A stretch of 47,309 nt of DNA from a virus: the IMG/VR virus record IMGVR_UViG_3300034402_000016, positions 1 through 47,309 of that record. One strand, written 5' to 3'. The position numbers and the translations under genes are program-made. Position 1 is the stretch's first letter. Each line of letters opens with the position of its first letter. This document shows, one piece after another, positions 3,711 to 47,115 of this stretch. The notes under the pieces are model-generated. The model was given only the letters and a program-made list of their open reading frames with translations, ran no database searches and was not told where the DNA came from.

Positions 3711-3986
3711 ATGGCTACAGCCAAACTCGACCCGGAGGCCCAGCGCGCGCAGCGCGTAGAGGACATTAAAGCCCTCTGCCGTGCTCTTAACGAGGCGGGC
3801 GCAGTCCCGCACTGGAGTCCCGGCCATCTACACGGCTACATCAATGCCAAGTTCGATGTTCTTTACGGCCTCGACAGCATGGCCTTCGCAAGCTTTGACG
3901 AGCTGGAGCGGGACCTCGCTTCTCGCCTCGAAGCTTTAACCGGAAAACCGGCTGGCAGGACTTGCAGCCACATAAGGAGAACTTGA
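3711..3986 (+). CDS. Hypothetical protein upstream of ParB
   Basis: A 91-residue protein, mainly helical, with Trp and Tyr residues in the middle and a basic C-terminus. I do not recognise the family. It overlaps the ParB-family gene by a TGATG junction (its TGA ends at 3986, where the next ATG begins), so the two are translationally coupled. Its role may be tied to the ParB protein, but that is only positional inference. Confidence 0.55.
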   Translation: MATAKLDPEAQRAQRVEDIKALCRALNEAGAVPHWSPGHLHGYINAKFDVLYGLDSMAFASFDELERDLASRLEALTGKPAGRTCSHIRRT

Positions 3987-6052
3987 TGAGCAGAACGGCA
4001 CGGGTAGCACACGAGCGCGCAGCAGAAGGCAATGCGCGGCGGAATCTCAGCCAGGACGAGCAAAGGGCTGTAGAGGCCCTTGAAGCGCAAGGCTGGGCTT
4101 TGAGCTTCGAGACGAAGAGCTTTAGGGCGACGCACGCCGGGCTGGGGCTGGACACCTTTCCGTTTCCGACTATAGGCGAGGTGATTGAGACCGCGAATCG
4201 GCTGTCGCAGGACAGCGCAGGCGAAGAGGCAATACCGGCTCCCGAACCTGCCAATGAAGCTAAAGAGCATCTGCGACTGGCGCATGAAGTTGATCTGCGC
4301 GATGCCTTAGTCAAATGGCTGGAGGGACGCGGGAAGACGGTCCGGTGCGATGTAGACACGCCGGAGGGCGTGGCCGATGTCTATGCCGGAGATGAAGTCT
4401 ATGAGCTTCGGCACGCGCCAACTCTCGACGATTTTATTAGCGCCGTGCACGTCGTGCGTGATTATCGCGACCAACTCAACAGGGCGGGCAGCGCGAACGT
4501 CCTCGCCTGCTGCATCAGTGGACAACAGGGCGAAGAGATGCTGGCCCAGGCCAAAGCGAAAGAGGGAATATGCGCAATCAACTGGGAGTTCAACGAGGGG
4601 CTTTCAGAACTTCTCGACCGCCGTGCCTTCCTGATTGAAGACCTCAGAGTGCGTAAGGCCGCGCCCGGAGAGATCATCTCAGAGCTTGAAGCGGCTAACA
4701 CACTGCCTGCATTCCAAAGGCTCGTCTCCGATTACGAACTTCAGGCCATCATAGATGACCTTGCCGACTCGCGTTTCACGAACGAGGAAGAGACCCGAAT
4801 CAAGCTCGCGCTGGATGCGTGCGCGGAGAGGCTCGGCGCAACAAAGAGCGCCGATGCTGAAATGAATCCGGCCTCAGATGAAACGGATTCGCTCTTCGGC
4901 CTCAGACATTTCGCGCATGATGAACTCGACCTGCTCATCACGGATGGCGTCACGCAGATCAGAGAAGGCCTCGACGATGACGTAGTCGAAGAGTACACCG
5001 CGAAGATGAAGGCCGGAGTCCTGTTCAAAGCGGGCCGCGCGTTCTTCGATGGTGAAAACTATTACGTCTCGGACGGCTTTCATCGTAAAGCCTCAGCGCT
5101 CAAAGCCGGCGTCGGCCTGGACATGGACGTGCGCAAAGGTACGCTGCGAGACGCCATCCTGGATGCCGTCGGCGCGAACGCCGATCATGGCCTGCGCCGA
5201 AGCAACGCGACGAAGCGCCGCGCGGTCGAGACTCTTCTGCGCGATGAGGAGTGGTCTCAGTGGAGCAACCGCGAGATCGCGCGCCGCGCGGGCGTCTCCC
5301 ATGAATTCGTCGCGACCGTGCGCGAAGAGCTATCTGGCAGTCGTAGCCAGATGGAAGTCACGGCGCAACGCGGCGAGACGACCTACACGGTCAAGACCGA
5401 AAATATCGGCAGCTCCCCGAAGTCAGCACCGGCGGAAGCCCCTTCAGAGCAAGCGGGCGAACACATTGAATCAAACACCTCTGCTACATCAGACACTTCC
5501 ACAGAATCCACTTCCACACAAAGCCTATCAACAAACAGCCAACAGGAGGTCAACCCTCCCGAAGCTTCCGCCGGAGCTGAAACTACTACGAGCCTCACGC
5601 AACGCGACGAACGCCAGCCTGCTGCCCCGACAGTTGAAAGGCCGGGCAAAGGCACCGCCGCAACACCATCCGAAAGCCCCACACCATCGTCCTACGGGTC
5701 CGCAGCCTGGAAGAAGGCGACGATAAACCTGCATCTGCAACTCCAGCCCGATGACGGCCACGAGCTTGGTCGCAAGGTGCTCATCACGGGCGTGCAGGAA
5801 GGGGCCGTCGGAACTACGGTGATGAAACTCGTGCGCGCCTCGGAGATTGGCCTTCATGACGGCCCGGCAGGAATGGTCCTCCGGCAGGTCGCGGAGAAGA
5901 TGACCGAGCGCGCTTCGTCGAAGCCTCCAACCAAATCATCTGCCGCCAAGAAGAAATCTGCCGCCAAAAAGGCAGCGCCCGCGAAGAAGGCGTCTGCCGG
6001 GAAGAAACCTGCCGCCGCTTCCAAATCGAGTAGTAAAGCCAAAACCGCCTAA
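3986..6052 (+). CDS. ParB-family protein with degenerate nuclease-like N-terminal domain
   Basis: A 688-residue multi-domain protein. Residues about 100-200 look like a PD-(D/E)XK nuclease fold (GVAD at 128-131, then VYELRH at 138-143), but Arg142 stands where the catalytic Lys would be. Residues about 300-400 form a ParB/Srx-type domain with SDGFHRKASALKAG. An HTH follows (NREIARRAGVS, after RRSNATKRRAVETLL), as in phage and plasmid ParB-like proteins. Then come a Ser/Thr-rich linker, a small beta domain and a Lys/Ala-rich tail resembling histone H1. It heads the PRTRC-like cassette. The ATG at 3986 has AAGGAG upstream. It is probably a DNA-binding partition or regulatory factor; nuclease activity is doubtful. 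Confidence 0.75.
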   Translation: MSRTARVAHERAAEGNARRNLSQDEQRAVEALEAQGWALSFETKSFRATHAGLGLDTFPFPTIGEVIETANRLSQDSAGEEAIPAPEPANEAKEHLRLAHEVDLRDALVKWLEGRGKTVRCDVDTPEGVADVYAGDEVYELRHAPTLDDFISAVHVVRDYRDQLNRAGSANVLACCISGQQGEEMLAQAKAKEGICAINWEFNEGLSELLDRRAFLIEDLRVRKAAPGEIISELEAANTLPAFQRLVSDYELQAIIDDLADSRFTNEEETRIKLALDACAERLGATKSADAEMNPASDETDSLFGLRHFAHDELDLLITDGVTQIREGLDDDVVEEYTAKMKAGVLFKAGRAFFDGENYYVSDGFHRKASALKAGVGLDMDVRKGTLRDAILDAVGANADHGLRRSNATKRRAVETLLRDEEWSQWSNREIARRAGVSHEFVATVREELSGSRSQMEVTAQRGETTYTVKTENIGSSPKSAPAEAPSEQAGEHIESNTSATSDTSTESTSTQSLSTNSQQEVNPPEASAGAETTTSLTQRDERQPAAPTVERPGKGTAATPSESPTPSSYGSAAWKKATINLHLQLQPDDGHELGRKVLITGVQEGAVGTTVMKLVRASEIGLHDGPAGMVLRQVAEKMTERASSKPPTKSSAAKKKSAAKKAAPAKKASAGKKPAAASKSSSKAKTA
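5332..5352. repeat. Dispersed hairpin, copy inside the ParB gene
   Basis: ATCTGGC (5332-5338) and GCCAGAT (5346-5352) form a perfect 7-bp stem with a 7-nt loop, within the coding sequence just after the HTH. It belongs to the same family as the intergenic copies at 16590, 22252 and 30276. Because it is inside a gene, a pure transcription-terminator role is unlikely for this copy; ParB could bind it. Confidence 0.6.
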
Positions 6053-6064
6053 AGGAGTAACTCT

Positions 6065-6496
6065 ATGAAAGTGATTCTCGTTTCGGAGGGCAACACCTGC
6101 CTGGAAATCGAAGACGACATCGCGGGCGACGACGCCATGCTCAGGAAGGCGCTCTCGACCGCCGTGCCTTACGCCTCGAATGCCGAGATCAAGCGCGAGG
6201 GCGGCGAGGTCAGGGTGATTAAGAAGGCCGCGCCCAAAGGCCACGCGAGCGAAGCAGTCGCCATGCTGGCACGCGCGCCCGAACACGTTAACCCCGCGAT
6301 CATGATGCACAGGCGACTGCACGAGATGGAGGACGAGGCGGGGCATCTCTCGTCGAGAAAGCTGGCGGGCATGCGCAAGGAGATGGAGCTTGCCTGCGAA
6401 CAGGGGCGCATCGAATTGTGCGAAGTCGTTGACGCCCTCGAAGCCTTACAGGAATCGGCTGCCGAACCCGGACTGATCCTGCCCGTAGGATTCTGA
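6065..6496 (+). CDS. PRTRC protein C-like (candidate modifier of the cassette)
   Basis: A 143-residue protein behind AAAGGAG. The first ~60 residues resemble PRTRC protein C: a strand, then a helix with DDAMLRKALSTAVPYASNA, then strands with EVRVIKKAAPKG. Known C proteins are about 70 residues, so this one has an extra ~80-residue helical C-terminal region. In cassettes with E1-, E2- and JAB-like proteins a small beta-grasp protein is expected as the conjugated partner, and this is the best positional candidate. There is no terminal Gly-Gly, so processing or a different chemistry would be needed. The family call rests on a short match and gene order. Confidence 0.5.
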   Translation: MKVILVSEGNTCLEIEDDIAGDDAMLRKALSTAVPYASNAEIKREGGEVRVIKKAAPKGHASEAVAMLARAPEHVNPAIMMHRRLHEMEDEAGHLSSRKLAGMRKEMELACEQGRIELCEVVDALEALQESAAEPGLILPVGF

Positions 6497-6498
6497 CT

Positions 6499-7482
6499 AT
6501 GTTTGTTGATGTGACAACTCCTGCGCCGGACCTGCCTCCTCCGCTCCCGCCCGGCTCGGCCTACGAGGCCATCGATGAGTTGCGCCATGTGTTAGAGCTG
6601 GCGGTCGCGCTCGAGGATTTGCGCCGCTCTTTCCCGGAGGAATTCAGGAAGCAGGAGCCGGTCAGCGTCAGGGGCGCGCACGCGCGCATGGCCCAGATCG
6701 AGGCTGTAGTCAGGCACGCCCGTTTCCTCGAAGTGTTCCGCACGCTCTTTCCCGCAGAGTTCAAACGACACGGCGCAAGCCCGGGCGACCCGGAAGAGAA
6801 GATTTACAAGGCGGTCATGAAATTCGCGGACCTGATTGAGGAGAACTATTTCCCGCTGCCAGACCTCTTTATGGACGCCTGGGATGAGTGCGAGGCATTC
6901 CCCGACGAGATTCATATCCAGCCTATCTTCTGGCGCGATTCAGAAGAGGACCCGCACGAGCTTGGTTACGTCTTCCAGTTCATCCAGGTCGCGGCGGGCC
7001 TGATCGAGCCGGATGACGATTGCGATCCGGGCTGCCCTATCCTCACGCTTCACCGGATTGTCAGCGCGCACACGCCGCTCGGAGAAATAAACACCCAGCG
7101 GCTGGCGGCGATGGGCAAAAAGCTCAGGACCCCCTTACGACACCTCGCCCTCGCCTGCGATGTGCACGACAAATGCGCCGGCAACATCTGGATCGATTAC
7201 TGCGACGAGTATTACTTAGGCACCGGAATCGGCTGGACCGTTAAGGGTGTGCGGGGCCTGGCTCGTGATTATCAGAAGGCGCTCAAGCTGATGGACCTCG
7301 TGCACAGCCTGGACCAGTGGCTCAAGAAGGACATAGAGCACGTCAGGCAGGCCGCACGGCTCTGGGCAAAGGCCATGAAGCCAACCCGGCAAACAGGGCG
7401 CGGGCAGACCTTGGCGGAGATTCTCGCGCCGGAGGGAGATAACGACGGTGAAGAAGAAGCGATCATCCTCATCGCAGTCTAA
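6499..7482 (+). CDS. PRTRC protein F-position protein
   Basis: A 327-residue soluble protein starting 2 nt after the C-like gene. It occupies the place of PRTRC protein F, between C and B. The sequence is rich in acidic, Trp and aromatic residues, with a Cys/Asp cluster (DDDCDPGCPILT) near residue 175 and a second Cys/His region (ALACDVHDKC) near 215-225. I cannot confirm the F family from motifs, so the name is based on gene order. It overlaps the next gene by 35 nt, indicating coupling. Confidence 0.5.
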   Translation: MFVDVTTPAPDLPPPLPPGSAYEAIDELRHVLELAVALEDLRRSFPEEFRKQEPVSVRGAHARMAQIEAVVRHARFLEVFRTLFPAEFKRHGASPGDPEEKIYKAVMKFADLIEENYFPLPDLFMDAWDECEAFPDEIHIQPIFWRDSEEDPHELGYVFQFIQVAAGLIEPDDDCDPGCPILTLHRIVSAHTPLGEINTQRLAAMGKKLRTPLRHLALACDVHDKCAGNIWIDYCDEYYLGTGIGWTVKGVRGLARDYQKALKLMDLVHSLDQWLKKDIEHVRQAARLWAKAMKPTRQTGRGQTLAEILAPEGDNDGEEEAIILIAV

Positions 7483-8173
7483 CGGGCTGTCTGCAACTCC
7501 ATACGGGATGGTGCCGCCTGCGGGCGCAGAGGCCGCGCTCTACATCTACCCCGGCCAGTGGCTCTTCCAGTGGGTGGACAGTGGCAGGCAGTTCTTCAAG
7601 TATGTCTCGCCGGCGACCGTGCGGCAGGCGCTCAGCAAGGAGCCGATTGATAGCGGGTGGATTCCCGCGAACGTGATTCGCTGGGGCACGTCGCGCGCGG
7701 GCGTCTTCATGGTCGGGTTTTACCCGCCGGCTCTTTATGATGTGCCGGTCGAGATGGAGGGGCAACCCGTGGCCTTACGCATCCCCCTGCCCGCGCTTGT
7801 TTTTGCGGGCATCAACTCCGGCTACTACATGTGGGCCATGAAGGATGCCGTCCTTAATCCTTCCGGACAGCTTTTCCAGGCGCCCCTTCCGAATATCAAC
7901 AAATTCGGGCTGATCTGCTTCGGCTCGAACGATCACCCGCATGTCTCGCGCGGAGGTTTCCAGCGCGCATGGGAGATGATCTGGCGCTCGGCCTGGAATG
8001 ACCACCACATGCAGGACCGGAGCAAGGCCGCGCCCGCCGACGTGCGCACGCAGCTCAAGAGTCTGCATGAGGCGCAGGCGCAGGAGTTTCCGCTTGACGA
8101 TCTTGTTCCGATGCATACGACGCTCGACGGAGCAGTGAAGAGGCTGACGCGCAGGGGAGGCGAAGACTTCTGA
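7448..8173 (+). CDS. PRTRC system protein B (E2-like fold)
   Basis: A 241-residue protein with clear PRTRC B features: KYVSPATVRQAL near residues 51-62, a YYMWAMK segment near 126, then LFQAPLPNINKFGLICFGS (142-160) and a late EFPLDDLVP. Comparative studies of prokaryotic ubiquitin-like systems relate this family to E2 conjugating enzymes; the PN...GxxC segment matches the E2 active-site region, making Cys157 the candidate catalytic residue. The GTG start at 7448 has GGAGGGAG 8 nt upstream and lies inside the previous gene. It is expected to act with the A and ThiF proteins. Confidence 0.82.
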   Translation: MKKKRSSSSQSNGLSATPYGMVPPAGAEAALYIYPGQWLFQWVDSGRQFFKYVSPATVRQALSKEPIDSGWIPANVIRWGTSRAGVFMVGFYPPALYDVPVEMEGQPVALRIPLPALVFAGINSGYYMWAMKDAVLNPSGQLFQAPLPNINKFGLICFGSNDHPHVSRGGFQRAWEMIWRSAWNDHHMQDRSKAAPADVRTQLKSLHEAQAQEFPLDDLVPMHTTLDGAVKRLTRRGGEDF

Positions 8174-8820
8174 TGCTGCCTCTCGTAAGCCACAGCTTCG
8201 CGGCGCCGGAGACGAATGAAGACTGGTCCAGGCGCGCGCAGCTCTTTGAATTCATCCTCGCCGCCGGCGGCGTCTACGTGCGCGGACATCGCGACCTGAT
8301 GGCCGCGACCTTCTGCATCGGCTATTGCGAAGTCAAGGGATTGCCCGAGGTGGAAGAGGAGCTGAGGTTCGATTTCGAGCGAGTGCCGCGCGAGCACCTG
8401 GAATGGATGCTCATGCACGCACGGCGCGAGGCGCTGGTCGATAGGGAGATTCTTTTTCATCTCTGCATGGAAAAGGATACCTGGGCCGTCACCATCCCGC
8501 CGCAGAAGCAGAGCGTCGCATCCTGCGAGCCGCTGGACGACGGGCCGGATTCGAGCCACACGCGCGCGCTCATTGATGTTCACTCGCATCACCGGATGCG
8601 CGCACGCTTCTCTTCGGTGGACGACGCGGCGGAGCAGGGCTTCAGGATTTACGCGGTGATGGGGAACGTGCTGAAAGAGCCGGAGATTCGCGTGCGCGTG
8701 GGGCTGTACGGCTATTTCTGGGAGATACCGGCGAGTTGGGTCTTCGAGATGCCGGACGGGTTGGTTGATTGCGTGGAGGGTTTGAAGCCTCCACGCTCCA
8801 AAGGGCAAGGATTCTTATGA
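8173..8820 (+). CDS. PRTRC system protein A, JAB/MPN-type metalloprotease
   Basis: A 215-residue protein with an exact JAMM motif: H137-x-H139, seven residues, S147, two residues, D150. Glu100 is a possible catalytic acid upstream. JAMM proteins of the JAB1/MPN fold remove ubiquitin-like modifiers or trim their precursors using zinc, and PRTRC protein A is a known member of this type. All metal-ligand residues are present, so it is probably active. Its ATG overlaps the stop of protein B by one base (TGATG) and its own stop overlaps the next ATG. Confidence 0.82.
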   Translation: MLPLVSHSFAAPETNEDWSRRAQLFEFILAAGGVYVRGHRDLMAATFCIGYCEVKGLPEVEEELRFDFERVPREHLEWMLMHARREALVDREILFHLCMEKDTWAVTIPPQKQSVASCEPLDDGPDSSHTRALIDVHSHHRMRARFSSVDDAAEQGFRIYAVMGNVLKEPEIRVRVGLYGYFWEIPASWVFEMPDGLVDCVEGLKPPRSKGQGFL

Positions 8821-9068
8821 GTCTAAACAAGCGCCCGCCGTTAGCGGCGACAAACAAATTGCCGTTGCGGTTGGTAGCCCCCGACGAATATTCGGGCTAT
8901 CGAGTGGTAGACGCGCGCGGAAGAAACCTTTGCATGCTCTACAACTGGCACGAAGAGGGTGGCGTGCAGCACACCGTCCCAGACGAAGAGGTGCGCGAGG
9001 TCGGCGAGTGGATAGTGGCGACGCTGAATGCGGCTCTTGAGTCCGACGAAAGGAGCGACGGCGCTTGA
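8817..9068 (+). CDS. Small protein between PRTRC A and ThiF
   Basis: An 83-residue protein starting at an ATGA overlap with protein A. It has a YRVVDARGRNLCMLYNW segment followed by an amphipathic helix with WIVATLNAAL, a pattern common in short phage proteins of unknown role. It is not part of the usual PRTRC gene set as I know it. It could be an accessory of this version of the cassette or an unrelated phage gene. Confidence 0.65.
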   Translation: MSLNKRPPLAATNKLPLRLVAPDEYSGYRVVDARGRNLCMLYNWHEEGGVQHTVPDEEVREVGEWIVATLNAALESDERSDGA

Positions 9069-9135
9069 AAACGCGCCTTCGGTAGATACGCATTCCTGCG
9101 CCCTGTGAACAAGGGCGGTCTCCTGCGAGGTTTGG

Positions 9136-10050
9136 ATGAAGCCCAAAAATAATATTCTACGTAAATCCCAAACGCTCGACCTCTCCTACGCCCGCGCCGC
9201 GCAGGTCGTGCCCGGCGGCTATGACCATCTTCGCCTGGTGCTCGTCGGCTGCGGAGGCACGGGGAGCTTTCTCGCCCCTTCTGTCGCCCGCCTCGCGCGC
9301 GTGCTTCAGGACGCCGGACGCGACGTGTCCGTGCTCTTTGTTGACCATGACATCGTCGAAGACAAGAACATCCCGCGCCAGAATTTCTGCCTCGCCGAGC
9401 TGGGGATGAACAAGGCCGTGACGCTCGCCGCCAGATGCAGCATCGCGTGGAATATGGAGATCGGCAGTATCCCCGAAAAGTTCAGCGATGCCGCGCTCGG
9501 CAACAGCAACAGATTCAGCTCCCTCACCGTGCTCATCGGCTGCGTTGACAACGCAGCGGCGCGGCGCGCCATCAATGCAGCCCTTCGCCAGAATGTGCAA
9601 CGACGGGCCGCCAACCTGTGGTGGCTCGACTGCGGAAACCTGAAGGAGGCCGGACAGGTCATGCTCGGCTGCGCGACGAAGGAGAGCGGGCTGAAGGGCG
9701 CATTCCCGACCAGGACGATCTGCACGGCGCTGCCGTCGCCGGCGATGCAGGCTCCGGACCTTCTCGTGCCGCGCCCGGAGGAGTTGTCCGGCCACAAGCT
9801 CTCTTGCGCGGAGCTAGCGATGCTCAACGCGCAGTCGCTGATGGTCAACCAGTATGTCGCAGCGGTCGCGGCGGATTACCTGTTGAAGTTTACGACCGGG
9901 CAGCTCAATAGATTCGCGACCTATTTCGACCTGGCGAGCATGACGACCAAGTCGCTCTACGTGACGCCCGATGAGGTGGCGCGCGTCATCGCCAAGCCGC
10001 CTGAATTCCTGATGGCCGAAATCGGCGGTCGCAAGAGGAGAGCGGCGTAA
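9136..10050 (+). CDS. PRTRC ThiF-family protein (E1-like)
   Basis: A 304-residue E1/ThiF/MoeB-type protein. The Rossmann ATP-binding loop GCGGTGS lies at 38-44, Asp70 ends the second strand, followed by NIPRQNF (78-84, the E1 NxxRQ motif), Lys93 and GCVDN (135-139). A Cys196 in a CTALPSP segment sits where E1 proteins carry the acceptor Cys. The protein should adenylate the C-terminus of a modifier and pass it to a thiol, presumably on protein B. There is no zinc-binding Cys quartet as in ThiF/MoeB. It is the last large gene of the cassette. Confidence 0.85.
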   Translation: MKPKNNILRKSQTLDLSYARAAQVVPGGYDHLRLVLVGCGGTGSFLAPSVARLARVLQDAGRDVSVLFVDHDIVEDKNIPRQNFCLAELGMNKAVTLAARCSIAWNMEIGSIPEKFSDAALGNSNRFSSLTVLIGCVDNAAARRAINAALRQNVQRRAANLWWLDCGNLKEAGQVMLGCATKESGLKGAFPTRTICTALPSPAMQAPDLLVPRPEELSGHKLSCAELAMLNAQSLMVNQYVAAVAADYLLKFTTGQLNRFATYFDLASMTTKSLYVTPDEVARVIAKPPEFLMAEIGGRKRRAA

Positions 10051-10148: not shown

Positions 10149-10185
10149 CGGACTCAAATTCTCAATCTCGAAAGGCAGGTGAGTG

Positions 10186-10752
10186 ATGTCAATCACGTAT
10201 TCTCCGGCTAAAAACCCCGAAGCGATTGCGCGGAAAGTGATCAGCGAATTTTACCCTGACCTGACGCGCGTTGATTTTGTTTTCCTCTTCAAGATCAAGA
10301 AGGACAAAGACGGCGTGCCGGTCATCCCGGTGCGCAAAGGTAAGGATGTTTGGTTCGAGGTCAAACTTATCAGCGGCCTCAACGCCTATCTCTCTTCAGA
10401 GCGCATCACCGGCAACGGCGAAGAAGAGCCAAGACCTTATTTCGTCATCAGCCTCACGCAAATCGTCTGGGATCATCATCTCGACGAGGCGCAGCGAGAG
10501 GCGCTGATGGACACTGCCCTGTGCCTTTGTGATTACGATTCTGAGAAGGACAAGCTCTCAGTTCGGGGCTATGACGTAGAGGCGCATCACGAGGTGATGA
10601 AGAGGCGCGGCGCATGGGCGCCTGAGCTTGAGACCTTCGTGAAGGTTGCGCAGCAGAGGCCGCTGCCGGGAGTGGCTCCGGCGACTAAAGAGGCGTCCGG
10701 AAGGATCAAGCGCGCCGCCGCCGGGTCTCCGGCAACGCCGCCCGCGCAATGA
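10186..10752 (+). CDS. Phage metallopeptidase-like protein with lost HExxH motif
   Basis: A 188-residue protein resembling the putative phage metallopeptidase family: VDFVFLFK strand, KLISGLNAYL, a FVISLTQIVWD strand, a helix with LDEAQREALMDTAL, then YDVEAHHEVMKRRGAW. In the active family the helix carries HExxH; here the same place reads LMDTALCLC, so the zinc site is missing. It is probably a non-catalytic derivative. The C-terminal ~30 residues are a basic, Ala/Pro-rich tail. ATG 10186 is preferred over GTG 10183, with AAAGGCAGG upstream. Confidence 0.6.
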   Translation: MSITYSPAKNPEAIARKVISEFYPDLTRVDFVFLFKIKKDKDGVPVIPVRKGKDVWFEVKLISGLNAYLSSERITGNGEEEPRPYFVISLTQIVWDHHLDEAQREALMDTALCLCDYDSEKDKLSVRGYDVEAHHEVMKRRGAWAPELETFVKVAQQRPLPGVAPATKEASGRIKRAAAGSPATPPAQ

Positions 10753-10802: not shown

Positions 10803-11213
10803 ATGTCATCAAGAACCGGCAACACGCGCCAGAGCGTCAGGGATGAGCAGCGCGCGCGCTTCGGAGTCAATAGGTTCACGGACCAGCACCTGACCTGCAC
10901 GGACTGCGGCGGCGCGTTCGTGTGGACCGCCGCCGATCAGAAGTATTTCCGCGAGCAGGGATGGACAAATACGCCGAAGAGGTGCAAGCCGTGTCGGGCT
11001 GCTAATCGCAATGGCTCTCGTCGGGAAAGCGCGCCTGTCACTACAGCGCAGCCGACATTGCAGGCGAGACCGGCGCGGCAGAGGGATGACCGTCAGCGCG
11101 TCGAGACAGAGATTCGCTGTGCGAAGTGCGGCAAAGTTGCAACCGTGCCTTTCAAGCCGCATCAGGGCAGGCCCGTTTACTGCAATACGTGTTTCGTGCC
11201 GGGTAACAAATGA
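10803..11213 (+). CDS. Two-zinc-ribbon protein
   Basis: A 136-residue protein with an N-terminal probable zinc-ribbon domain (CTDCGGAF...DQKYFREQGW...RCKPCR) and a C-terminal CxxC-x17-CxxC domain (CAKCG...PVYCNTC). The linker is Arg/Gln/Thr rich. Start ATG 10803 follows GGAG; an upstream in-frame start at 10749 overlaps the previous gene and lacks a good site. Zinc ribbons of this kind are found in nucleic-acid-binding proteins of many phages and bacteria. It overlaps the next gene by ATGA. Confidence 0.72.
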   Translation: MSSRTGNTRQSVRDEQRARFGVNRFTDQHLTCTDCGGAFVWTAADQKYFREQGWTNTPKRCKPCRAANRNGSRRESAPVTTAQPTLQARPARQRDDRQRVETEIRCAKCGKVATVPFKPHQGRPVYCNTCFVPGNK

Positions 11214-11419
11214 ACTGTCCGAATTGCGGCCACCAAATTGAATTTAGGAATCTGCCGCGCACGCGTAGGCAGCGGCAAGTATTGGATTACTACATGAGTT
11301 TCTCTGCCCATAGGGGACATCCACCCTCATACGCAAGGATCGCGCTGCATATCGGAGTGAAATCAAAAGCTACGATCATGAAGCACGTTCAAGCTTTGAA
11401 ACGGCAAGGATTTATTTAG
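11210..11419 (+). CDS. LexA-like winged-helix protein with N-terminal CxxC
   Basis: A 69-residue protein beginning with CPNC and continuing as a LexA-type DNA-binding domain: RQRQVLDYYMSF, GHPPSYARIALHIGV, then KATIMKHVQALKRQGFI. It has no protease domain, so it cannot self-cleave like LexA; it is a stand-alone DNA binder. It is one of two small candidates for binding the operator at 68-86. Translation is coupled to the zinc-ribbon gene through ATGA. Confidence 0.72.
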   Translation: MNCPNCGHQIEFRNLPRTRRQRQVLDYYMSFSAHRGHPPSYARIALHIGVKSKATIMKHVQALKRQGFI

Positions 11420-21188: not shown

Positions 21189-21518
21189 ATGGACACGGCA
21201 ATGTCGGCGCCAAAGCAATCCCCCTTTCCTATCTCTCTCTCGCAGATTATCACGGGAGCCTTAACGGCCCTGCTGGTGTCTGCCCTGGTCGGCGCTCTCT
21301 CTGTATATGTTACGGCCACACGCACGAGCGACCGCCTTGTCACCGTCGAGCAGAAGATAGACACGAACAAGACAGAGACGGACGCGCAATTCAAGGAACT
21401 GCGCGACCACACCATCACGCGCGCGGAATTCCAGAGTTTCAAGGAAGCGATGCAGGACGTGCGAGCTGACATCCGTGAAATCAGAAATGCCCAGATGCAG
21501 GAGCAGCGTCGCCGATGA
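21189..21518 (+). CDS. Membrane-anchored coiled-coil protein
   Basis: A 109-residue protein with one transmembrane helix (about residues 18-40, ITGALTALLVSALVGALSV) followed by a long coiled coil. This layout occurs in phage proteins of the lysis region (inner-membrane spanin or holin-associated) and in other small phage membrane proteins. The stop overlaps the HD-GYP start by ATGA, so the two are translated together. Confidence 0.6.
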   Translation: MDTAMSAPKQSPFPISLSQIITGALTALLVSALVGALSVYVTATRTSDRLVTVEQKIDTNKTETDAQFKELRDHTITRAEFQSFKEAMQDVRADIREIRNAQMQEQRRR

Positions 21519-22105
21519 CGGCAACTGAACTTAAATCTGCAACGGCAGGCCTGCTTGCCGCCCTGGGGCTAAGGGATAAAGGCACGCGCGATCACTCAAA
21601 AAGGGTCGCGCGTGTTTCGGTCATTTTGGGGCAGAGGCTGCGCCTTGAGCCTTATCTCATGACTGCCCTCAGCTTCGGCGCCCTCCTGCATGACATCGGC
21701 AAGATTTCGACGAAAGAGGCCGTGCTCAAAAAGGAAGGCTCGCACACGCCAATTGAGCGCATGCACATGAAAGAGCATGCCTGTTGCGGCGCAGAGATGC
21801 TCGAAGAGCTGAAGATGCCCGAACTCGTGACGGCTTGCGTTCGCCAGCATCACGAGCGCTGGGATGGCCTGGGTTATCCGAGAGGCCTCAAGGGCACGGA
21901 GATCGGTTTGCTGGCGCGCATTGTAGCCGTGGCCGATGCCTACGATGCCATGACAAATAACCGCTGCTATCGCGCGGGCAGGAGCCATGAAGCGGCGGTC
22001 GCAGAGATTCAGCGCGGGAGCGGGAGCCAATTCGATTCTGATGTGGTCAGGGTGTTCCTGTTAATCAGCCAGGAACAACTAACGCAGATAGCGAGAGGGT
22101 TTTAA
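21515..22105 (+). CDS. Stand-alone HD-GYP domain protein
   Basis: A 196-residue HD-GYP domain. His27 in DHSKRVA, HDIGK at 59-63, a His in the HMKEHACCGAEML region (84-96), HHERWDGLGYP at 112-122 and IVAVADAYDAMTNNRCYR near 135-152 are all present; these are the metal ligands and the GYP signature. HD-GYP enzymes hydrolyse cyclic di-GMP and some other cyclic dinucleotides. There is no receiver or sensor domain. Occurrence in a phage late region is unusual; it could lower host c-di-GMP or attack a defence signal. Its ATG overlaps the upstream gene and its stop overlaps the next start. Confidence 0.85.
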   Translation: MTATELKSATAGLLAALGLRDKGTRDHSKRVARVSVILGQRLRLEPYLMTALSFGALLHDIGKISTKEAVLKKEGSHTPIERMHMKEHACCGAEMLEELKMPELVTACVRQHHERWDGLGYPRGLKGTEIGLLARIVAVADAYDAMTNNRCYRAGRSHEAAVAEIQRGSGSQFDSDVVRVFLLISQEQLTQIARGF

Positions 22106-45865: not shown

Positions 45866-45937
45866 GCGGGTCAGGTCAGCGTCTCGTCATACTCAGGCAC
45901 ATGGGTCTCAATCTCAGGTCTTTGTTTTGTCCCATAG
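45866..45937. repeat. 72-bp direct repeat, copy 2
   Basis: Exact copy of 43909-43980. On the minus strand it encodes the last ~21 residues and the stop of the glycosyltransferase-like gene, so one DNA sequence ends a fibre gene in copy 1 and a membrane protein gene in copy 2. Confidence 0.95.
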
Positions 45938-47115
45938 CTTCCTTTGACCATCTCCCATAGACTGAGTATGACCGGAGACGCGAAGACGATAAAGTAAACA
46001 TCCAGCACAGACCTGTGGCCCGTGTGCGCCCAGAAAATCCCCGTCAGCAGCATAAATGACAGGGCGAGGCCGAGAACCAGAAGTGTTTCCGGTCTCCTGC
46101 GTTTCATTAAGAGACCAACAAGGCCGAGCATCTGGACTGGGAAATAAGAAGCGAAGTTGACGATTGTCGCCATCCTGCCTTTGCTCGGATTGACGACGGG
46201 CGAGAACCCCGCCAGATTCTTCTTTAGTCCGTTGGAGATGGTCTCAGTGGGATGCTCGCGTATATACGCAACCCCCATATCCTTGAATCGGTCGCTCTGC
46301 TCCATCTCGCCGAGTGCTAGGATGTTCTCCTGCTCTGCCTTGCTCAGATGATCCCATGCCACGCCTTCGCTCTCGTCAATGCTCGCGGACGGGTAGCGGG
46401 AAAACGTATCCGGGTTATTCGCGATCCAGAGGAAGTGACCCGCCTGCGATGTCAGCACCAACCGCCCGAATAAAATCTCATTACGAATAATCCAGGGAGA
46501 TACGACCAAGCAGAATCCGATGAGCGCGGGGAGAGTGTTGCGCAGGCCAGCCGTGTAAAGAAGCCACGCGAGGGCCACAACTATGAAGGGCGCGAGGCTC
46601 GCCCTTGTCAGCAGGCTCAGGGCCAGACAAACGCCAGCTAGAGCCGAGAGCCATGCCCGCCGCTTCAGCCCCGTTTCGATTAGCAGCAGGACCGAGAGGG
46701 CGGTGAGAAAAGTAAAGAGGGATGTTTCCTGAAGGCTTGCGTCATGCCAAACGTAATAGGGATAAACGGAAGTGATAAGCAGGGCTATCAGTCCAACCCT
46801 TTCACCAAAAAGATGCTTTGCCAGTAGATAGCTGATAAAGGCTGTGCCTGTTCCAATCAAGGCTTGAGCTATAACTACGGTCCACCCGAATCTTCCGCCC
46901 AATGTAGCGACCGCGAGAAACAAAGGATAAACCGGAGGCCAGAGGGCGCACTTGACTCCCATCCAGTTATCAACACAGAATCCTCGCCCCGACAAGAGGC
47001 TTTCGGTCACATGATAAAAGAGAGAGTAGCCCGTCTCAAGATAATCACCATCTCGCGTGCTCAGACGAGGCAAGAGCCTAAGCGCGAAGGCCATGATTAA
47101 GAGCGCGTTTTTCAT
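45871..47115 (-). CDS. Membrane glycosyltransferase, GT39/ArnT-like
   Basis: A 414-residue polytopic protein with many hydrophobic helices. The N-terminal loop RDGDYLETGYSLFYHVTESLLSGRGF has acidic residues in a periplasmic loop, as in lipid-linked sugar transferases of the GT-C class (GT39, PMT/ArnT), followed by VYPLFLAV, AFISYLLAKHLFG and VYPYYVWHDASLQE. These enzymes move sugars from polyprenyl phosphate donors to surface molecules. It is the only long minus-strand gene. Its last ~21 residues are encoded within the 72-bp repeat, so its natural C-terminus seems replaced. Confidence 0.75.
   Translation of the reverse strand: MKNALLIMAFALRLLPRLSTRDGDYLETGYSLFYHVTESLLSGRGFCVDNWMGVKCALWPPVYPLFLAVATLGGRFGWTVVIAQALIGTGTAFISYLLAKHLFGERVGLIALLITSVYPYYVWHDASLQETSLFTFLTALSVLLLIETGLKRRAWLSALAGVCLALSLLTRASLAPFIVVALAWLLYTAGLRNTLPALIGFCLVVSPWIIRNEILFGRLVLTSQAGHFLWIANNPDTFSRYPSASIDESEGVAWDHLSKAEQENILALGEMEQSDRFKDMGVAYIREHPTETISNGLKKNLAGFSPVVNPSKGRMATIVNFASYFPVQMLGLVGLLMKRRRPETLLVLGLALSFMLLTGIFWAHTGHRSVLDVYFIVFASPVILSLWEMVKGSYGTKQRPEIETHVPEYDETLT

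What the first reader, a model, noticed from the sequence alone, without database searches (positions are those of the whole stretch)
3986..10050. A PRTRC-like ubiquitin-type conjugation cassette embedded in a tailed phage
Protein B with an E2-like PN...GxxC segment (Cys157), protein A with an exact JAMM motif, and an E1-like ThiF protein with GxGxxG, NxxRQ and a candidate acceptor Cys196 lie in PRTRC order behind a ParB-family gene. PRTRC sets are best known from plasmids and integrated elements; here the set sits between early and replication genes of a phage, with all predicted catalytic residues kept. It may modify host or phage proteins during infection, protect against defence, or serve plasmid-like maintenance.
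Basis: partly seen in the sequence, partly recalled or inferred. Interest (0 to 1): 0.9.

Follow-up and report, generated by a model that had tools for sequence, protein, structure and literature searches.

The report
Phage-borne ubiquitin-like protein-tagging cassette
This bacterial virus carries an apparently complete ubiquitin-like protein-tagging pathway (tag, activating enzyme, transfer enzyme and tag-trimming protease) next to a DNA-partition-type gene; such cassettes were known from plasmids, and here they turn up across several groups of tailed phages.

Summary
Confirmed and extended. Window 3986-10050 encodes, in one direction, a ParB-like protein, a ubiquitin-like protein (Ubl), a helical protein, an E2-like enzyme (Prok-E2_D, 1.4e-26), a JAB/JAMM peptidase and an E1/ThiF protein, in a 47-kb IMG/VR record with terminase, portal, major head, scaffold and tape-measure genes. 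K58-G59 are the only invariant columns in 34 relatives. In other loci the Ubl is a separate gene ending exactly, or within a few residues, after that KG. Cassettes without JAB have Ubls ending at KG (7/7, plus 1/1 in a second set), while nearly all extended Ubls have a JAB beside them, so JAB probably matures the Ubl. The E1 cysteine is more likely C224 than C196. Twenty-three other viral contigs carry the whole cassette; 18 also have terminase or portal genes. A related cassette lies in an apparent Acidobacteriota prophage. The E1 tree places these in a sister clade of canonical PRTRC; PRTRC cut-offs are missed and proteins E and F do not match. Biochemistry is inferred with good support; target and benefit are unknown.

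The parts
3986..6052 (+). ParB-like protein (central ParB-type region) with a C-terminal 'E-like' domain at about 5690-5941; N-terminal third unassigned
   Evidence: phrog_1033 ParB 4.7e-7 over residues 314-450; E-like domain 3e-16 against the gene that precedes the Ubl in other loci; ParB-like gene upstream of the cassette in 57 loci, 14 of them viral
6065..6496 (+). P0002: Ubl (residues 1-59, 6065-6241) fused to a helical tail; predicted cleavage after K58-G59 (codons 6236-6241)
   Evidence: K58 and G59 the only invariant columns of 34; 9 of 34 relatives hit PRTRC_C and 5 of 34 hit Prok_Ub; hhalign to PRTRC_C E=9e-7; AF2 pLDDT 87, beta-grasp-like secondary structure then helices
6499..7482 (+). 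P0003: helical protein in the PRTRC_F position (called F here), function unknown
   Evidence: Homologous to the gene before E2 in plasmids and MAGs; AF2 pLDDT 83, nearly all helix; no PDB fold match
7448..8173 (+). P0004: E2-like conjugating enzyme (Prok-E2_D/PRTRC_B), catalytic Cys codon 7916-7918; start 7448 (GTG) or 7508 (ATG) uncertain
   Evidence: PF14460 1.4e-26, TIGR03737 5e-21; Cys in 95 of 96, one gap
8173..8820 (+). P0005: JAB/JAMM metallopeptidase (PRTRC_A-like), predicted Ubl maturation and deconjugation enzyme
   Evidence: TIGR03735 5e-11, PF14464 8e-6; JAMM residues conserved; co-occurrence with Ubl extension
8817..9068 (+). P0006: small protein, 83 aa from the ATG at 8817, not part of the conserved core
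   Evidence: No family hit; not among the shared clusters
9136..10050 (+). P0007: E1/ThiF-like activating enzyme; candidate thioester Cys224 (codon 9805-9807)
   Evidence: TIGR03736 4.3e-42, PF00899 2e-14; catalytic motifs and C224 conserved

Best explanation
A temperate-type tailed phage, probably of Acidobacteriota, carries a complete ubiquitin-like conjugation operon of a PRTRC sister clade. Proposed working: (1) JAB (P0005) cuts the Ubl-tail precursor P0002 after K58-G59; (2) E1 (P0007) adenylates Gly59 with ATP and takes it as a thioester on C224; (3) the Ubl passes to C137 of the E2 (P0004); (4) E2, perhaps with the helical protein P0003 and/or the tail as adaptor, attaches it to a target; (5) JAB can remove it. 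Targets are probably the element's own or host DNA-maintenance/replication proteins (ParB-E first), serving replicon maintenance or regulation. Step 1 rests on comparative evidence; steps 2-3 on family membership and residue conservation; steps 4-5 and the role are inference (role about 0.4).
For: Family hits and conserved catalytic residues. Ubl identity and invariant KG. Natural splitting of Ubl from tail just after KG. JAB-less cassettes with E1 and E2 have zero Ubl extension in 7 of 7, while 72 of 80 JAB-bearing ones are extended (Fisher p=1.1e-6, not corrected for relatedness); a separately fetched set agrees (13 JAB-bearing with 1-4 residues after KG, 1 JAB-less ending at KG). Five-gene order conserved in about 80 loci including 23 other viral contigs; 18 of these have terminase/portal hits. 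ParB-like gene upstream in 57 loci; DnaN nearby in about 20 non-viral loci. Integrase and host genes flank the cassette-bearing phage genes on an Acidobacteriota contig. Published precedent: the DUB BilC exposes BilA's C-terminal glycine before activation (PMC11354881).
Against: No biochemistry. JAB/extension co-variation rests on few independent changes (3 to 5 pairs; none opposed, not significant on the tree). E1 hits in solved structures cover mainly the adenylation half. Foldseek gives no significant match for the Ubl-tail model (the best-probability hits are ubiquitins or Ubls, E>1). No E3, proteasome or receptor seen. DnaN is absent beside viral copies, weakening a replication link for phages.
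Confidence: 0.72

Rival explanations
1. Counter-defence or host takeover: the phage tags host defence or metabolic proteins with the Ubl during infection to inactivate them.
For: Early-region position; in the E1 tree the cassette moved between phage and non-phage genomes several times.
Against: Plasmids and chromosomes carry the same cassette with ParB or DnaN neighbours; outside the generic E1 hits, no defence-gene signature.
Confidence: 0.2
2. Defence or superinfection exclusion carried by the (pro)phage, analogous to Bil or CBASS Cap2/Cap3, tagging incoming phage proteins.
For: Related E1-E2-JAB-Ubl operons (Bil, CBASS) act in defence; E1 matches PADLOC E1-E2 models 1.7e-8; a prophage relative exists.
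Against: PADLOC hits cover only the shared adenylation domain; Prok-E2_D, the KG-ended Ubl and the ParB link are not CBASS/Bil features.
Confidence: 0.15
3. Non-conjugating sulfur-carrier or regulatory pair: ThiF-like E1 makes a thiocarboxylate on the Ubl for a cofactor or tRNA, and the E2-like protein is a binder.
For: E1 is ThiF-like; the Ubl end is KG, not GG.
Against: A conserved E2 cysteine (95 of 96), a JAB and an extra E1 cysteine (99 of 103) fit a conjugation relay; no rhodanese or biosynthetic partners found in the cassette.
Confidence: 0.08
4. Decaying passenger genes without function in the phage.
For: P0006 is inserted between JAB and E1; no near relative available to measure selection.
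Against: All reading frames intact with catalytic residues kept at 30-56% identity across phyla; at least 18 phage contigs keep the full cassette.
Confidence: 0.05

Closest known systems
PRTRC system (NCBIfam TIGR03735, 03736, 03737, 03738 and others) of proteobacterial and Deinococcus plasmids
   Same: Same order (ParB-E-C-F-B-A-ThiF), homologous ThiF, B, A and C, Ubl ending in KG, ParB upstream
   Different: Scores below curated cut-offs for B, A and ThiF; Ubl fused to a helical tail; F and E not detectably homologous; E-like domain fused to ParB; sister clade in the E1 tree; on phages
Operon type 6d of Iyer, Burroughs and Aravind 2006 (PMC1779556)
   Same: Ubl with C-terminal glycine, JAB, E1, E2-like, alpha-helical protein; that set already includes Anabaena copies
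   Different: That paper lists stand-alone Ubls and bacterial operons; here fused Ubl-tail and tailed phages; the absolutely conserved downstream E2 histidine was not found in this clade
Cyanobacterial plasmid cassette (e.g. pANACY.02)
   Same: Five core genes, including fused Ubl-tail, in the same order
   Different: Plasmid setting with DNA polymerase III beta and gamma/tau genes; E-like protein is a separate gene
Bil (BilABCD) and CBASS Cap2/Cap3
   Same: Ubl-type relay with JAB processing (Bil)
   Different: Different E2 family and operon; antiphage role shown for them, not here

Membership tests
PRTRC system (canonical) | ThiF protein above TIGR03736 cut-off | tested here: not met
   144.1 vs 144.75 bits; E 4e-42, a near miss
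PRTRC system (canonical) | Protein B above TIGR03737 cut-off | tested here: not met
   75.1 vs 131.45 bits
PRTRC system (canonical) | Protein A above TIGR03735 cut-off | tested here: not met
   42.4 vs 101.8 bits
PRTRC system (canonical) | Protein C (Ubl) | tested here: inconclusive
   P0002 itself no hit; 9 of 34 relatives hit TIGR03738; profile match E=9e-7
PRTRC system (canonical) | Proteins E and F | tested here: not met
   hhalign probabilities 4% and 0.1%
PRTRC system (canonical) | ParB-family gene and gene order | tested here: met
   ParB-like first, then C/F/B/A/ThiF positions; remote profile match to PRTRC ParB E=2e-10
Iyer 2006 type 6d operon | Ubl + JAB + E1 + E2 + helical protein together | tested here: met
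Iyer 2006 type 6d operon | JAB with N-terminal domain holding conserved Arg and Trp | tested here: inconclusive
   R40 and W104 present in the window, conserved in 56 and 58 of 89; whether they are the residues meant in the paper was not established
Iyer 2006 type 6d operon | Absolutely conserved His downstream of E2 Cys | tested here: not met
   H143, H145 and H167 not conserved in the clade
Ubiquitin-like conjugation pathway (functional) | E1~Ubl and E2~Ubl thioesters, isopeptide conjugates | not testable with these tools
   needs biochemistry
Tailed phage | Terminase, portal, major head, tape measure genes in the same record | tested here: met

The most novel reading that the evidence does not exclude
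Several lineages of tailed phages of Acidobacteriota, Chloroflexota and others encode their own complete, self-maturing ubiquitin-like conjugation pathway, with a Ubl made as a Ubl-tail precursor cut by a phage JAB, and use it to modify partition or replication proteins (or host proteins) during lysogeny or infection.
Probability: 0.5. Interest if true: 0.9.

Novelty: new variant of a known kind. Interest (0 to 1): 0.78.

Why it matters
Bacterial ubiquitin-like conjugation has so far been shown to matter in antiphage defence (Bil, CBASS). Phages that carry a full E1-E2-Ubl-JAB relay would put the machinery on the other side of that conflict, or reveal a role in replicon maintenance that has been open since PRTRC cassettes were named. 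Splitting of the Ubl precursor at KG and its co-variation with JAB give direct, testable predictions for a system whose biochemistry I found undescribed in the library searched. The searches found no paper describing this cassette in phages, but that library lacks many journals and preprints.

Tried and rejected
Single-sequence scans of viral contigs with E1 and E2 found nothing; alignment queries were needed. tblastn of E2 against named phages: no hit; E1 gives only distant ThiF-type hits there. Solved-structure searches with E2, JAB and Ubl profiles gave no meaningful relatives. Fold searches of Ubl-tail and F models: nothing significant. PF05133 portal: no hit. Homology of F to PRTRC_F and of the E-like domain to PRTRC_E rejected at present sensitivity. 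Cys196 as the E1 acceptor rejected in favour of C224. A chromosomal cassette family in Acidobacteriota was examined as possible prophages: no match to the window's or the L042 prophage's structural proteins within 20 kb, so not counted as phage. A DnaN-like hit in one F member (L087) was seen and not pursued.

Full report
What is there. The window is a 47,309-base IMG/VR virus record. Genes at 3986-10050 run in one direction and are tightly packed (JAB starts on the last base of E2). HMM searches identify an E2-like enzyme (PF14460 1.4e-26; PRTRC_B 5e-21), a JAB/JAMM protein (PRTRC_A 5e-11; Prok-JAB 8e-6) and an E1/ThiF protein (PRTRC_ThiF 4e-42; PF00899 2e-14), behind a ParB-like protein (phrog_1033 5e-7). 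Downstream lie terminase, portal, head morphogenesis, major head and tape-measure genes, scaffold and tail genes; upstream a Gp157/Gam-like gene. All canonical PRTRC models are missed at their curated cut-offs, ThiF by less than one bit.

The overlooked Ubl. P0002 (6065-6496) has no direct family hit, but its orthologues sit before the helical gene in cyanobacterial plasmids. In Pseudanabaena plasmids the same protein is split into two overlapping genes, a 65-70 aa protein ending LAGTKG plus two residues and an 83 aa helical one. Across 34 fused relatives K58 and G59 are the only invariant columns; 9 of the 34 hit PRTRC_C and 5 hit Prok_Ub, and a profile built without the PRTRC-like members still aligns to PRTRC_C (E=9e-7). 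AlphaFold2 gives pLDDT 87 with strand-strand-helix-strand-strand order, a looser segment at 53-60 containing the KG, then helices. Foldseek is not significant for this two-domain model, though its best-probability hits are ubiquitins and Ubls. In many other loci the Ubl is free and ends exactly at KG.

JAB and the extension. Among loci where E1 and E2 are both seen, 7 of 7 without a JAB have a Ubl ending at KG; of 80 with a JAB, 72 have an extension (2-5 residues, or a longer extension that is usually a helical tail, as in the window, 84 residues). Fisher p is 1.1e-6, but many loci are kin; on the E1 tree only 3 to 5 independent pairs exist, all concordant or neutral, too few for significance. 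Loci fetched afterwards from Acidobacteriota agree: 13 JAB-bearing with 1-4 residues after KG, one JAB-less ending at KG. JAB processing of a Ubl precursor has a published precedent in Bil (PMC11354881).

Catalytic residues. In 103 E1 sequences the nucleotide-site residues D70, N78, R81, Q82, K93 and D138 are all but invariant; C224 is present in 99 with four gaps, C196 in only 64. E2 C137 is present in 95 of 96; JAMM residues in 87-88 of 89.

Spread. Alignment-based scans found 27 viral and 58 genome loci by E1 and two viral loci by E2. The core order Ubl-F-E2-JAB-E1 recurs in about 80 loci, 23 of them other viral contigs with all five parts; 18 of these 23 match a terminase or portal model (one, L029, only weakly). 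IMG/VR records may be fragments or prophage pieces, so these are lower bounds. The closest relatives by E1 are viral L030 and L012 and contigs of one Acidobacteriota MAG (51-56% identity). One of these contigs holds an integrase (PF00589 3e-21), a P22-type coat protein, a portal-like DUF4055 protein and a tape-measure protein beside host genes such as an epimerase and a Ham1 protein: an integrated prophage with the cassette, though a MAG contig could be chimeric. This makes Acidobacteriota the likely host group and temperate life likely for the group; the window shows only an excisionase-like HTH gene.

Phylogeny. The E1 tree separates canonical PRTRC (proteobacteria, Deinococcus, Bacteroidota, two Acidobacteriota) from a second clade with cyanobacterial plasmids, Chloroflexota, Acidobacteriota and all phages (SH-aLRT 100). 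Viral rows do not form one clade, so the cassette moved repeatedly between phages and other genomes, or some 'genome' rows are prophages.

Context and role. A ParB-like gene lies just upstream in 57 loci, 14 viral. The window's ParB-like protein ends in an E-like domain that is a separate gene in cyanobacteria. DnaN lies near the cassette in about 20 non-viral loci, DnaX in 14, and neither near viral copies. This favours a tie to replicon maintenance or replication, but does not exclude counter-defence or superinfection exclusion. The first description of this operon type (6d) proposed reversible tagging as addiction or protection (PMC1779556).

Standing. What it works like: a self-maturing Ubl-conjugation relay, about 0.75 to 0.8. 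What it is a member of: Iyer type 6d in the broad sense; not canonical PRTRC by the curated tests; a sister clade. Searches of the paper library found no report of this cassette in phages, but that library omits many journals and preprints.

Noticed in passing
L134-L148 (Acidobacteriota genomes): A chromosomal version of the full cassette occurs in up to three copies per genome, with a sigma-54-activator-type ATPase, a second AAA ATPase, a DUF1257 protein and a radical SAM protein as shared neighbours; some copies lie near an integrase.
   Followed up: partly
L095: A contig binned as Heimdallarchaeota carries the cassette with the order Ubl tail-F-E2-E1-JAB; may be a binning error.
   Followed up: no
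L002, L043, L044, L050 and others, downstream of E1: DNA polymerase III beta (DnaN) and gamma/tau (DnaX) genes sit near the cassette in many non-viral loci.
   Followed up: partly
L077, L068, L075: Cassette apparently interrupted: L077 has E2 in two pieces with a reverse-transcriptase-like ORF between them; L068 and L075 have a split E1.
   Followed up: no
window 10183-10752: Putative phage metallopeptidase family protein (PF18894 3e-11) just after the cassette, also near it in L042, L030, L012 and L017.
   Followed up: no
window 21515-22105: HD-domain (HD_5, HD-GYP-like) phosphohydrolase, PF13487 4e-32, unusual in a phage.
   Followed up: no
window 45871-47115 (-): Membrane mannosyltransferase-like protein (PMT_2 6e-12) on the opposite strand at the record's end.
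   Followed up: no
window 11210-11419: Short ORF resembling the LexA N-terminal DNA-binding domain by eye.
   Followed up: no
L042, L012: In these close relatives the gene before the Ubl is a DUF3102 protein with the E-like domain, not a ParB: the E-like domain, rather than ParB, may be the constant partner.
   Followed up: partly
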